Part shown: one piece after another, positions 10,023-14,735 of the stretch
Numbering within the stretch: the stretch's first letter is position 1
Layout: the number at the start of each line of letters is the position of its first letter
Assembly (NCBI RefSeq): GCF_002008315.2
Contig: NZ_MVDG02000001.1
Span: forward strand, 1,798,001 to 1,862,000
Source of the DNA: Arthrobacter sp. KBS0703
GTDB lineage: Bacteria > Actinomycetota > Actinomycetes > Actinomycetales > Micrococcaceae
DNA: 64,000 bases
Direction of reading: 5' to 3'
The notes under the pieces: generated by a model
Database searches by the model: none
The model's input: the letters and a program-made list of their open reading frames with translations, nothing else
Told to the model about the DNA's origin: nothing
Program-made: the position numbers and the translations under genes

Positions 10023-10270
10023 ATCGGGTATCCACGGGCGCGAGCAACGGGGTATCCACGAGCGCAACCACCGCTGAGTTTTGCGGGCACTGCGGCGAGC
10101 CGTCCGACGGCGGCGCCGGCCCGACGTCGGACGTTCACCGCCGCTGCGCCGAGCGCCTCGCGATGGAACCGCCGCGGTACTGCGCCGTGTGCCGACGCCG
10201 AATGAAAGTCCAGGTGACGCCACTGGGCTGGTCGGCGGAATGCTCCCGCCACGGGGTGCTCGCACCATGA
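10019..10270 (+). CDS. bsaP: Biotin synthase auxiliary protein (BsaP-type)
   Basis: A small 83-residue protein. Cysteines lie at 22, 25, 43, 55, 58 and 75, in two CxxC pairs (FCGHC and YCAVC) followed by a lone C before RHG. This size, cysteine pattern and position directly after bioB match the actinobacterial BsaP proteins, which are reported to be needed for mycobacterial BioB activity and to carry an iron-sulfur cluster. It overlaps bioB and bioA by 4 nt each, so it is probably translationally coupled to both. The assignment rests on context plus cysteine pattern; a general zinc-ribbon protein is the alternative. Confidence 0.8.
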
Positions 10271-11621
10271 CGGACACGCCAATGGGCCTGATCCAGCGGG
10301 ACCGTGCGCGGCTGTGGCACCCATACGCACCGGCGTCCCCGGACCTTCCGCTCTGGGAGGTTGAGGCGGCCGACGGCGTGCGGCTGCGGCTTCGGGGTGA
10401 GGACGGCGGCCGCCATGACGTGGTTGATGCGATGTCCTCGTGGTGGTCGGTGATCCATGGTTACCGCCACCCGGTGCTGGACGCCGCTGCACGGCGGCAG
10501 CTGGCGGATTTCAGCCATGTGATGTTCGGCGGACTGACGCACGCCCCGGCCGTTGAACTGGCCGAACGGCTGGTGGACATGGCCCCGTCTGCCCCGGGCC
10601 GGCCGGGTTTGGAGCGGGTGTTCCTCGCGGACTCGGGCTCGGTGGCCGTGGAGGTCGCACTGAAGCTGGCGGTGCAGTTCCAGACCGCAGCCGGGCGCCC
10701 GCGGAGGCAGCGGTTCCTTAGCCTGCGCGGCGGATACCACGGGGACACCTTCGCGGCGATGGGCGTCTGCGACCCCGTGGATGGCATGCATTCCTCCTTC
10801 CCGGGCCTGCTGGCCGGCAACGTGTTTGCGCCGCGTCCCCCGGCGGCATCGTCAGCCACGCCCGAATCCGTGCGGGAGTGGGCATCCGGGCTCGGGGACA
10901 TCGCTGCTGCGCATTCCGGGGAGCTGGCCGCGATCATCGTCGAGCCGGTCCTGCAGGGTGCCGGCGGCATGCACGCCTACCCGGCCGAATGCCTGACCGC
11001 GCTGCGGCAGGTGGCGGACCGGCACGGCCTGCTCCTCATCTTCGATGAGATCGCCACCGGATTTGGCCGGACCGGCGAGCTGTTCGCGGCCGATCATGCC
11101 GGCGTCGTGCCGGACATCATGTGTTTGGGCAAAGCCCTGACCGGCGGCTACCTGACGCTGGCCGCCATGCTCTGCACCGGCGAAATCGCGGCTGCCGTCT
11201 CGGCCGGCGCGGCCGGGGCCCTGCTGCACGGCCCCACCTTCATGGGCAACCCGCTGGCATGTGCGGTGGCCAACGCCAGTCTTGGCATGATCGGCGACGG
11301 CGGGTGGCGGGCCGACGTTGCCCGGATCGCCGCGGGCCTGGCGTCGGGCTGGCCCCCGCCCGGGACCTTGAGGCCGTCCGGGAGGTCCGCACCACCGGCG
11401 CCGTCGGAGTCATCGAGCTGCACGGCGCCGTCGACGTCACCGCGGTCACTGCCGCGGCGATCCGGCACGGCGTCTGGGTCCGGCCGTTCCGGAACCTCGT
11501 CTACACGATGCCCCCGTACATCAGCACAGCGGCTGATGTTGAACAGATCACCGCGGGCATGACGGCGGCCGTCGCCGAAGTCCACGAACGCGTCCCGGCA
11601 CGGTCCGGAGGCGTGGCATGA
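10267..11621 (+). CDS. bioA: Adenosylmethionine-8-amino-7-oxononanoate transaminase, one frameshift
   Basis: PLP aminotransferase that makes 7,8-diaminopelargonate. It starts [23 protein letters not shown] overlaps the bsaP stop. Visible BioA motifs are SSWWSVIHGYRHP, LRGGYHGDTFAAMG, IFDEIATGFGRTG and the PLP-lysine block CLGKALTGGYLTLAAML. After IAAGLASG the frame breaks at about 11349. Adding one C there gives SGLAPARDLEAVREV and continues to the expected end VRPFRNLVYTMPPY...SGGVA. The repaired length is about 451 residues, normal for BioA. The break lies in a region of poor sequence quality and is probably not biological. Confidence 0.92.
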
Positions 11622-12808
11622 ACGCCTCGATGAACCAGTGGCTCGAGCGCCAGGCCGCTGTCCGGGACCGCCGGGGCCTGGTCCGCCGCCCGCTCCCCCG
11701 CACCGCGGACGAACGGTTCATCGACCTGGCGAGCAACGACTATCTGGGCCTCGCGGCGGACCCGCGGGTTGCGGGGGCTGCTGCGGCGGCCGCGTCGCTG
11801 TGGGGCGCGGGCGCCACATCCTCGCGTCTGGTGGCCGGAACCACGCGGCTGCACCTGGACCTCGAGGAGGAACTGGCCTTGCTGGCCGGGATGGAGTCGG
11901 CGCTGGTGTTCTCCTCCGGCTATCTGGCCAACCTTGGTGTGATCACGGCGCTGGGCGGCCCAGGAACCCTGATCGTCGCGGATGAACACTGCCACGCCTC
12001 GATGATCGACGGATTCCGGCTCAGCCGCTCCCGCACCGAATCGTTCACCCACAACAGCGTGGCGGAGGCCGGCCGGCTGCTCGCTGACCGTCCGGAACCC
12101 CGCGCGATCATCGCCGTCGAATCGGTCTACAGCGTCCTGGGTGACGAAGCCCCGCTCAGGGACTTACTGGCACTGGCCGAGGAACACGACGCCGTGCTGC
12201 TCATCGATGAGGCCCACAGCCTGGGAGTCACCGGCACCGGCAACGTCCAGGGCCGTGGCTCGGTGGCCGGGACCGCCCTTGCGGGGCATCCGAACGTGAT
12301 CGTGACCGCGACGCTGTCCAAGGCCCTGGGCAGCCAGGGCGGAGCGGTCCTGGGATCCGCCCTGCTGCGGGAGCACCTCGTCAACCGGGCCCGGGCTTCA
12401 TCTTCGACACCGGCCTGGCGCCCGCCTCGGCAGCGGCGGCCCTCGCCGCGGTGCGGATCATCCGGGACGAACCGTGGCGCGCGGGATCCGTCCGAAGCAA
12501 CGCTGCGGCGCTGTCCGCCGGGCTGCCCCGGCCCTTGCAGCCCGCGGATCTGCCGCCGGTGGCGGCGCCGCCGTAGACCGGGCGGCGGGGGCGGTCCAGT
12601 CCATCGCCATGCCGTCCGCGGAATCAGCCCTGGCAGCTGCCGAGGCCGCGCGCACGGCCGGCGTCCGGGTCGGCTGCTTCCGCCCGCCGTCCGTTCCCGA
12701 CGGAATTTCACGCCTGCGGCTCACCGCCCGCGCCACCCTGTCTCTTATACACATCTAGATGTGTATAAGAGACAGGTGCTGCGCGGCATTTTGGAGGAAC
12801 TTCCATGA
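11618..12808 (+). CDS. bioF: 8-amino-7-oxononanoate synthase, frameshifted and interrupted by adapter sequence
   Basis: PLP-dependent condensation of pimeloyl thioester with alanine. It starts ATG at 11618, overlapping the bioA stop. Good BioF motifs are LASNDYLGLA, GAGATSSRLVAGTT, VFSSGYLANLG, DEAHSLGVTG and the PLP-lysine block TATLSKALGSQGG. The frame breaks at about 12396 (repair gives RARAFIFDTGLAPASA) and again at about 12523 (repair leads into GAVQSIAMPSAESAL...RLRLTARATL). A 38-bp adapter at 12738-12775 follows, then VLRGILEELP and stop. A few codons between LTARATL and VLRGIL are probably missing. The true gene is likely intact. Confidence 0.9.
   Translation: MNASMNQWLERQAAVRDRRGLVRRPLPRTADERFIDLASNDYLGLAADPRVAGAAAAAASLWGAGATSSRLVAGTTRLHLDLEEELALLAGMESALVFSSGYLANLGVITALGGPGTLIVADEHCHASMIDGFRLSRSRTESFTHNSVAEAGRLLADRPEPRAIIAVESVYSVLGDEAPLRDLLALAEEHDAVLLIDEAHSLGVTGTGNVQGRGSVAGTALAGHPNVIVTATLSKALGSQGGAVLGSALLREHLVNRARASSSTPAWRPPRQRRPSPRCGSSGTNRGARDPSEATLRRCPPGCPGPCSPRICRRWRRRRRPGGGGGPVHRHAVRGISPGSCRGRAHGRRPGRLLPPAVRSRRNFTPAAHRPRHPVSYTHLDVYKRQVLRGILEELP
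12738..12775. other. Nextera mate-pair junction adapter (assembly artefact)
   Basis: CTGTCTCTTATACACATCT (12738-12756) is followed directly by its exact reverse complement (12757-12775). Each 19-mer is the Tn5 mosaic end used in Nextera libraries, and the head-to-head 38-bp palindrome is the mate-pair circularisation junction. Its translations (SYTHLDVYKRQ, MCIRDR, SLIHI) are well-known contaminant peptides. It is not natural DNA of this organism. Confidence 0.98.
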
Positions 12809-13482
12809 ACCTGCCCCGCATCATTCTGGTCACCGGAACGGACACCGGCGTCGGAAAAACCATCACGACGGCGGCCCTCGCCGCCGCCCTCCGGGGCCGG
12901 GGACGCAGCGTCGCCGTGTACAAGCCCTGCCAGTCCGGGGCCGCCGCAGGCGATTCCGACGCGGGCGAAATCATGCGGCTCGCGGGCGCGGTGACGGCGG
13001 AAACCGGGGTCGTCCTGCAGCAGCCGTTGGCCACCGTCGCCGCTGCCGCCATCGATGGAACGCCGCTCCCTACGGTGGCCGTGCACGCCGGGACGGTCCG
13101 CGAACTCGCCGCGTCCCACGATCACGTCCTGGTTGAAGGCGCAGGCGGCCTGCTAGTGGCGCTGGACTCCGACGGCGGCACCCTGGCGGATCTCGGATCT
13201 CTCCTGGCGGCCGCATTCCTCCTCGTTGCCCGGCCGGGGCTCGGCACCCTGAACCACACCGCCCTGACCCTCGAAGCACTGGAGGCACGGGACCTGCGGG
13301 TCGTTGGTGTGGTGCTCGGCAGCTGGCCCGTCAACCCTGAATTCGTGCACCGCAGCAACCGGCAGGTGCTCGGATCGCTGCCGGCGCCCTTCCTCGGCGC
13401 CCTGCCCGAGCAGGCCGCGGAACTGTCCCCGGCCGCTTTCCGTGCGGGGGCAGCTGCATGGCTGAACGGCCTGCCCGCATGA
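12805..13482 (+). CDS. bioD: Dethiobiotin synthetase
   Basis: A 225-residue ATP-dependent enzyme that closes the ureido ring of dethiobiotin. The N-terminus MNLPRIILVTGTDTGVGKT carries the P-loop GTDTGVGKT of BioD. YKPCQSG and the VEGAGGLLVALD segment are further family motifs. ATG overlaps the bioF stop (ATGA at 12805-12808), and the bioD stop overlaps the ATG at 13479. The reading frame is intact across its whole length, so the sequence problem upstream ends at the adapter. Confidence 0.96.
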   Translation: MNLPRIILVTGTDTGVGKTITTAALAAALRGRGRSVAVYKPCQSGAAAGDSDAGEIMRLAGAVTAETGVVLQQPLATVAAAAIDGTPLPTVAVHAGTVRELAASHDHVLVEGAGGLLVALDSDGGTLADLGSLLAAAFLLVARPGLGTLNHTALTLEALEARDLRVVGVVLGSWPVNPEFVHRSNRQVLGSLPAPFLGALPEQAAELSPAAFRAGAAAWLNGLPA

Positions 13483-14735
13483 ACCCGGCGATGACGGCCG
13501 GATCGGCGGGGCCGTGGACGGACCGGGTCGGGCAGGCGGAGGGCTCTGACCAGGTGGAAAGCGCTGACCGGGCGGAAGTGCCTGGCCAGGGCCGCTGCCC
13601 GTACCTCGTGGTGCGCGACCCGGACACCGTCCGTGACGTGCTGCACCGGCCTGCAGACTTCAGCCCGGCGAATGCCCTGGTCGCGGTGACGCCCCTGGAA
13701 GGGGCCGCCCTGCGCGTCCTGCAGCGCGTGGGCTTTGCGCTGCCACCCGTGCTGGCCAGCAACGACACAGACACGCACGCCGGGATCCGCAAGGTCGTGG
13801 CGGGATTCTTCACCCCTGCCACGGTCGCGGCCATGGAGCCGCGGATCCGGGAGCTGGCGCGGGAAGCGGCACGGAACGCCGCGGACCAGATCGGCCATTT
13901 CGGCCATGCGGACCTCGTGCAGACGGTGGCGGCGTTTCCCCCGGCCGTCGTGATGCTCGAGCTCCTCGGACTGCCCGTCCGGGATCTCGCGGACCTCAAG
14001 CGGTGGGGCCTTGACTCCATGGAGCTGTTCTGGGGCTGGCCCGACACGGACCGGCAACTGGCACTGGCCCACAGCGCCGCAGATTTCTACGCCTGGCTGC
14101 GCAAGCTCGTGGCGGAAACCAGGGCGGCTCCCGGCCGCAACCTGTTCAAGTCGCTGGCAGAACACGGCCTGTCCACGCCCGAGATGTGTTCGCTCGGATA
14201 CTTCCTGCTGATCGCCGGGCAGGAAACAACCACCCAGCTGATCAGCACCACCCTGTTCCGCCTCATGGAAGGGTCCGCGCCCGCGGGCTGGAAGGACGCG
14301 GCGTCCGAAGCAGGCTCCAAGGCCACGGTCCGGCACGTGCTCAACAGCGAATCGTCGGTCCCGACCTGGCGCCGTGTGGCAGCCCACGCCACGGACCTCG
14401 GCGGCGAACTGATCCCCGCAGGCACGGAGATCCTCCTCGAACTGAGCGGCAACAAGATCACACCGGCGTCCGCACCTGGGAGTCAGTCCCGGTCCGCGCA
14501 GGCGGCCTCTCCGGAGACGGCCAAGGGACAATCAACCGGCTATGGCATCGTGTTCGGCTCCGGTATCCACCGCTGCCTCGGGGCCAAGCTCGCGGAACTG
14601 GAGGCGGCCGTCACCGTCCAGGAAGCTGCCGCGGCGCTGCCTCGCATCCAGTTGAGCGATCACGAGCCCGAATGGATCCGGTTCCTGTCCTTCCAGGCTC
14701 CGCGGACAGTCACCGTGCTCGACAGGCCACGCTGA
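13479..14735 (+). CDS. Cytochrome P450 encoded at the end of the biotin operon
   Basis: A P450 of 418 residues. The heme-binding loop FGSGIHRCLGAKLAELE places the ligand at Cys366. The I-helix oxygen-activation motif is AGQETTT, and the ExxR pair is in LNSESSVPTWRR. The start at 13479 is preferred because it gives the same ATGA overlap seen at all other junctions of this operon; an in-frame ATG at 13458 lies inside bioD. In Bacillus, the P450 BioI cleaves acyl-ACP chains to pimeloyl-ACP. The position here, with no other visible pimelate gene, makes an analogous supply role possible but unproven. Confidence 0.88.
   Translation: MNPAMTAGSAGPWTDRVGQAEGSDQVESADRAEVPGQGRCPYLVVRDPDTVRDVLHRPADFSPANALVAVTPLEGAALRVLQRVGFALPPVLASNDTDTHAGIRKVVAGFFTPATVAAMEPRIRELAREAARNAADQIGHFGHADLVQTVAAFPPAVVMLELLGLPVRDLADLKRWGLDSMELFWGWPDTDRQLALAHSAADFYAWLRKLVAETRAAPGRNLFKSLAEHGLSTPEMCSLGYFLLIAGQETTTQLISTTLFRLMEGSAPAGWKDAASEAGSKATVRHVLNSESSVPTWRRVAAHATDLGGELIPAGTEILLELSGNKITPASAPGSQSRSAQAASPETAKGQSTGYGIVFGSGIHRCLGAKLAELEAAVTVQEAAAALPRIQLSDHEPEWIRFLSFQAPRTVTVLDRPR

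What the first reader, a model, noticed from the sequence alone, without database searches (positions are those of the whole stretch)
12738..12775. Nextera mate-pair junction adapter left inside bioF
The 38-bp head-to-head repeat of the Tn5 mosaic end is the exact library junction sequence. It replaces the last part of bioF, between LTARATL and VLRGILEELP. Its translated products enter databases as false peptides (SYTHLDVYKRQ). Any annotation of bioF as a pseudogene here would be wrong, and the surrounding contig join is untrustworthy.
Basis: partly seen in the sequence, partly recalled or inferred. Interest (0 to 1): 0.8.

Follow-up and report, generated by a model that had tools for sequence, protein, structure and literature searches.

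The report
Sequencing adapter left inside bioF
A laboratory adapter used to prepare DNA for sequencing was left in this bacterial genome assembly, where it overwrote a short piece of a biotin gene, so it is an assembly artefact and not biology.

Summary
The 38 bp at 12738-12775 are exactly two head-to-head copies of the synthetic 19-bp Tn5 mosaic end, the mate-pair junction adapter.

The same assembly holds 251 exact copies; 98 other genomes searched, 60 of the same genus, hold none. None of 45 exact copies checked has a 9-bp target duplication. Four flanks of other copies repeat DNA 3.1-3.7 kb away in the orientation that mate-pair circles produce (4 of 120 tests; 0 of 360 in control orientations).

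Two side claims need correction. bioF also carries two single-base deletions, and bioA one, away from the adapter, so the adapter does not show that bioF is intact. And relatives support the large-scale join; only local bases are wrong.

SYTHLDVYKRQ does occur in public protein sets (58 proteins). A known kind of artefact; only its number in one assembly and the similar length of the replaced stretches are notable.

The parts
12738..12756 (+). first 19-bp Tn5 mosaic end of the junction adapter
   Evidence: exact match; identical to Tn5MErev in PMC4248319 (passages)
12757..12775 (-). second 19-bp mosaic end, inverted, completing the 38-bp palindrome
   Evidence: exact match; the 38-mer is printed as a circularisation adapter in PMC7357533 (passages)
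11618..12808 (+). bioF as assembled: 396-aa ORF, native frame for about residues 1-260, then out of frame, last residues back in frame after the adapter
   Evidence: ORF; frames by tblastn with relatives; TIGR00858 261.7 bits against a cut-off of 426.45, residues 20-260
12390..12390 (+). single-base deletion in bioF relative to relatives (approximate place)
   Evidence: 5 of 5 relatives; again 4 of 4 under a stricter rule
12524..12524 (+). single-base deletion in bioF relative to relatives (approximate place)
   Evidence: 4 relatives; not returned under the stricter rule
10081..11618 (+). bioA, broken into two frames by a single-base deletion at about 11344
   Evidence: TIGR00508 positions 1-337 in one frame and 339-418 in another; deletion in 5 of 5 relatives
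12805..13482 (+). bioD, intact
   Evidence: TIGR00347 123.7 bits, cut-off 83.3

Best explanation
The 38 bp are an untrimmed mate-pair junction adapter built into the assembly. Tagmentation puts a mosaic end on each end of a genomic fragment; the fragment is circularised, so the two mosaic ends meet as a 38-bp palindrome; reads run from genome into this palindrome. Here both edges of a small assembly break in bioF were extended into the same palindrome and merged through it: 33 native bp were lost and 38 artificial bp put in. Shown: adapter identity, copy number, absence from the relatives searched, replacement with colinear flanks, mate-pair polarity at four other sites. Inferred: that reads carrying the adapter closed a gap, and that a limit on gap size explains the similar lengths.
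For: Exact 38-mer; halves and whole identical to published oligo and adapter (protocol); 251 copies in this assembly against 0 in 98 other genomes; 33 bp replaced in 5 of 5 relatives with colinear flanks; 0 of 45 copies with a 9-bp duplication; 4 of 120 flank tests positive in the mate-pair orientation, 0 of 360 in the control orientations; same 38-mer in unrelated named genomes.
Against: The window site is not itself one of the four sites with distant DNA. Not every adapter site is neat: of 27 blocks tested against relatives, many had flanks that did not align up to the adapter, and close pairs of adapters replace quite different lengths. The gap-closing step rests on eight clean sites and no reads. 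The library type was not read from any record of this strain, whose name I do not know.
Confidence: 0.97

Rival explanations
1. A real insertion or scar of a Tn5-type transposon (natural or engineered) in the living strain.
For: The 19-bp halves are functional ends for Tn5 transposase (PMC4248319, passages).
Against: 0 of 45 exact copies has a 9-bp direct duplication (that Tn5 makes 9-bp duplications is recalled); native bases are replaced; no natural IS50 outside end with up to 2 mismatches in the assembly; nothing but the two ends is present at this site. The transposase family search gave no match but is uninformative, since its 14 control genomes were silent too.
Confidence: 0.01
2. At this site the adapter joins two places that are kilobases apart in the true genome (a chimeric contig join).
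For: Mate-pair junctions do join distant DNA, and four other flanks in this assembly carry such DNA.
Against: Both flanks lie 33 bp apart on one strand in 5 of 5 relatives; the window site is not among the four hits.
Confidence: 0.01
3. A native dispersed palindromic repeat of this species that happens to equal the mosaic-end pair.
For: Hundreds of copies spread over the main contig.
Against: Absent from 98 other genomes, 60 of the same genus; letter-identical in unrelated named genomes and to synthetic oligos; copies sit in coding sequence in place of conserved bases.
Confidence: 0.005

Closest known systems
Nextera (long) mate-pair junction adapter: two head-to-head 19-bp Tn5 mosaic ends
   Same: All 38 bases identical; positions within reads and circle polarity as the protocol predicts at four sites.
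   Different: It sits in a finished-looking contig in place of native bases, where the protocol requires it to be trimmed before assembly.
Adapter contamination of public assemblies
   Same: The same 38-mer is in at least 120 stretches of species genomes (scan stopped at its limit), 7 stretches of viral contigs and 5 of 72,556 plasmid records.
   Different: 251 exact copies in one assembly; in a phylum sample of 396 genomes only one other had it, once. I did not count copies per genome in the named genomes.
Tn5 / IS50 insertion
   Same: The ends are a laboratory derivative of IS50 ends.
   Different: No 9-bp duplication in 45 copies, no natural outside end, native bases replaced.

Membership tests
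Mate-pair junction adapter artefact | Exact 38-bp head-to-head mosaic-end sequence | tested here: met
   0 mismatches; published sequences
Mate-pair junction adapter artefact | Belongs to one assembly and not to the lineage | tested here: met
   251 copies here, 0 in 98 other genomes
Mate-pair junction adapter artefact | Downstream end - adapter - upstream end polarity, kilobases apart, on one strand | tested here: met
   4 of 120 flank tests positive, 0 of 360 controls, at other sites of the assembly; not at the window site
Mate-pair junction adapter artefact | Present in raw reads only as library sequence, absent from native DNA | not testable with these tools
   no reads held
Tn5 / IS50 insertion | 9-bp target-site duplication | tested here: not met
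   0 of 45 exact copies
Tn5 / IS50 insertion | Natural IS50 outside end in the genome | tested here: not met
   0 matches with up to 2 mismatches; inside end not tested
Tn5 / IS50 insertion | Tn5 transposase gene in the genome | tested here: inconclusive
   PF02281 no match here, but none in the 14 control genomes either

The most novel reading that the evidence does not exclude
Adapter-carrying reads can act as false gap fillers: small breaks in a scaffold are closed with the palindromic adapter when the true gap is about as long as the adapter. This yields hundreds of nearly length-neutral false substitutions in a contig without N that still rates as 99.99% complete, an error that length-based and completeness-based checks would tend to miss.
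Probability: 0.5. Interest if true: 0.25.

Novelty: not a real feature. Interest (0 to 1): 0.12.

Why it matters
No biology is at stake, but the assembly misleads: 251 exact adapters in a 4.86-Mb genome rated 99.99% complete, and the clean sites examined replace native bases. Translated adapters enter protein sets: 58 public proteins with SYTHLDVYKRQ were returned by one search. Claims of gene loss, pseudogenes or odd peptides in this genome should first be checked against the adapter sites and the reads.

Tried and rejected
Real Tn5 insertion: rejected for lack of 9-bp duplications and of a natural outside end, and because native bases are replaced. The transposase search was uninformative.

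Native repeat family: rejected.

General base errors as the cause of the bioA and bioF frameshifts: not supported. Private single-base indels agreed by four other sequences, more than 60 bp from adapters, were 3 in 46,492 covered bases of this genome (two of them at 11344 and 12390) against 18 in 214,874 for the relatives. A looser count gave 6, 22, 26 and 13 per region in this genome (5, 12, 17 and 13 of them away from adapters) and, for the relatives in the same regions, 0-4, 9-16, 1-13 and 11-24; only in one region (L163) does this genome clearly exceed all its relatives. So the deletions in bioA and bioF remain unexplained: local error or real.

A 1.8-kb segment between adapters at L158:3213-5027: no flank-to-flank match in the five syntenic relatives, part of it matches another place in one relative; its ORFs look ordinary by eye. 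Not pursued.

Flank test: one search flagged 7 of 132 40-base flanks as having a second copy in the sample. Four abut the adapter and are the mate-pair hits; one (L159:11257) is a 21-base match not abutting the adapter, and two (L164:476 and 526) are caused by neighbouring adapter bases. A first exact-match version found 2 of 51 in the right-flank predicted category, 0 of 51 in the left-flank predicted one and 0 of 51 in each of six control categories; it left out sites near stretch ends and any mismatch, so I repeated it with one mismatch allowed and each side judged alone. The 22-base length and the mismatch were set.

Flank alignments: one search tested 27 adapter blocks (21 full, 6 half). 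Eight full ones were carried into; at seven the replaced length agrees between relatives (one relative differs by 3 bp at one site), at the eighth (L163:11024) it varies from 26 to 35 bp. Dropped: sites whose flanks did not align up to the adapter, and sites next to another adapter where a flank found no match. Composite sites are less neat (for example own 137 bp against native 54; own 88 against 100-101). The 15 stretches were picked by hand, mostly where many adapters are listed, so they are not a random sample.

Literature: searches. In one search the terms YTHLDVYKRQ, CLLYTSRCV and MCIRDS were in no paper of the library; its one paper holds the DNA 38-mer. Passages only were seen of PMC7357533, PMC4074385, PMC4676930, PMC4248319 and PMC10978663; other papers only as search listings. 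PMC10978663 does not use the word adapter.

Full report
What is there. The window holds one exact copy of the 38-bp palindrome, at 12738-12775; none was found in 100 shuffles. It is made of two inverted 19-bp halves and lies in the last part of bioF, with 29 bp between it and the bioD start.

What it is. The 19-bp half is identical to the oligonucleotide Tn5MErev printed in PMC4248319, which also says that the wild-type Tn5 ends were replaced by hyperactive mosaic ends (passages). The 38-mer is printed as a biotin-labelled ring adapter for circularising fragments of about 4 kb in PMC7357533, a protocol that shears by ultrasound and ligates the adapter (passages). [quoted passage not shown] PMC4676930 describes the Nextera mate-pair steps and the trimming of junction adapters before assembly (passages). 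The strain's own library record was not available to me, and I do not know its name.

Copy number. The assembly (4.86 Mb, 37 contigs, rated 99.99% complete) has 402 forward and 389 reverse matches to the 19-bp half with up to 3 mismatches and 251 exact 38-mers. In a set of 99 genomes only this one has the 38-mer; the other 98 (60 of the same genus, 38 of the same order by my count of the table) have none. In a phylum sample two of 396 have it: this one, and one other with a single copy.

Other collections. A scan of species genomes stopped at its limit with 120 stretches; the 80 listed come from 17 organisms by my count, among them Enterococcus, Collinsella, Scytonema, Streptomyces, Ideonella, Rhizobium and Bacillus. 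Viral contigs: 7 stretches. Phage records: no match in 50,697. Plasmids: 5 of 72,556. E. coli genomes: no match in 20,395 records.

What it did here. Five relatives with the same bioF-bioD order have 33 bp where this assembly has the 38-bp adapter (5 of 5). The flanks are colinear, so gene order is right and local bases are lost. Of 27 adapter blocks tested against relatives, eight full ones were examined closely. Seven replace 33, 34, 43, 29, 37, 36 and 26 bp, agreeing between relatives except for one relative that gave 32 at the 29-bp site; the eighth varies from 26 to 35 bp. One half-length block replaces 11 bp in four relatives. The other sites are not this neat: flanks that do not align up to the adapter, or close pairs of adapters that replace quite different lengths.

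The mate-pair signature. In a circle a read passes from the fragment's downstream end through the adapter to its upstream end. So a right flank may copy upstream DNA, and a left flank downstream DNA, on the same strand. The window and the 15 stretches hold 66 adapter blocks. Of the flanks that could be tested, 3 of 58 right flanks copy DNA 3.1-3.6 kb upstream and 1 of 62 left flanks copies DNA 3.7 kb downstream; the six control categories give 0 of 360. The hits were first seen and the rule was set after that. The window site is not one of the four.

Not a transposon. 0 of 45 exact copies has a 9-bp direct duplication. There is no natural IS50 outside end with up to 2 mismatches. The transposase search says nothing, as its controls were silent.

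Mechanism, inferred part. No N occurs in the window or the 15 stretches, and the main contig is 4.42 Mb. Mean G+C next to the adapters is 0.71, against 0.67 for the stretches. With replaced lengths near 38 bp at the clean sites, this suggests that small GC-rich breaks were closed with adapter-carrying reads when the gap size fitted. This is inference from eight sites in hand-picked stretches; I give it about even odds.

bioF and bioA. Away from the adapter, bioF has single-base deletions near 12390 (5 of 5 relatives) and 12524 (4 relatives), and bioA one near 11344 (5 of 5). tblastn with a relative's BioF finds the window's bioF in three frames; bioA matches TIGR00508 in two frames. The adapter adds 5 bp against the relatives, which by arithmetic returns bioF to its native frame after the two deletions, so the ORF looks full-length at 396 aa; it matches TIGR00858 only over residues 20-260, at 261.7 bits against a cut-off of 426.45. 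Private single-base indels are not more common in this genome than in its relatives under a strict rule (3 in 46.5 kb against 18 in 214.9 kb); under a looser rule one of four regions shows an excess. So the adapter cannot be used to argue that bioF is intact in the strain; reads are needed.

False peptides. A search with the out-of-frame ORF that carries the adapter peptide returned 58 proteins from 110 candidates with E up to 10, five of them at E of 0.001 or less. All 58 contain SYTHLDVYKRQ, 44 of them in the middle of the protein. The query held that peptide, so this is expected of hits; it shows that such proteins exist, not how many, since only proteins of similar length were searched.

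Verdict. An artefact of a known kind.

Noticed in passing
window 11344, 12390, 12524: Three single-base deletions in neighbouring biotin genes bioA and bioF relative to relatives, in GC-rich stretches, away from the adapter; real decay or local error cannot be told.
   Followed up: partly
window 13458-14735: A cytochrome P450-like gene overlaps the end of bioD; it matches several P450 models, all below their cut-offs.
   Followed up: no
L158:3213-5027: A 1.8-kb segment between adapter copies that is missing from the syntenic place in five relatives; part of it matches another place in one relative. Possibly a misplaced piece or a real accessory segment.
   Followed up: partly
L201:1501-1538 (NZ_MT039157.1, last 38 bases): A plasmid record labelled complete and circular ends in the 38-bp adapter.
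   Followed up: partly
L200:1501-1538 (NZ_KY978628.1): A plasmid record labelled complete has 6 listed matches, both strands counted, to the palindrome, none under an annotated gene at the best place.
   Followed up: partly
L149:10-47, L151:7600-7637, L154:3164-3201, L155:8377-8414: In viral contigs four of seven adapter copies lie within 10 bases of an end of the stretch held.
   Followed up: no
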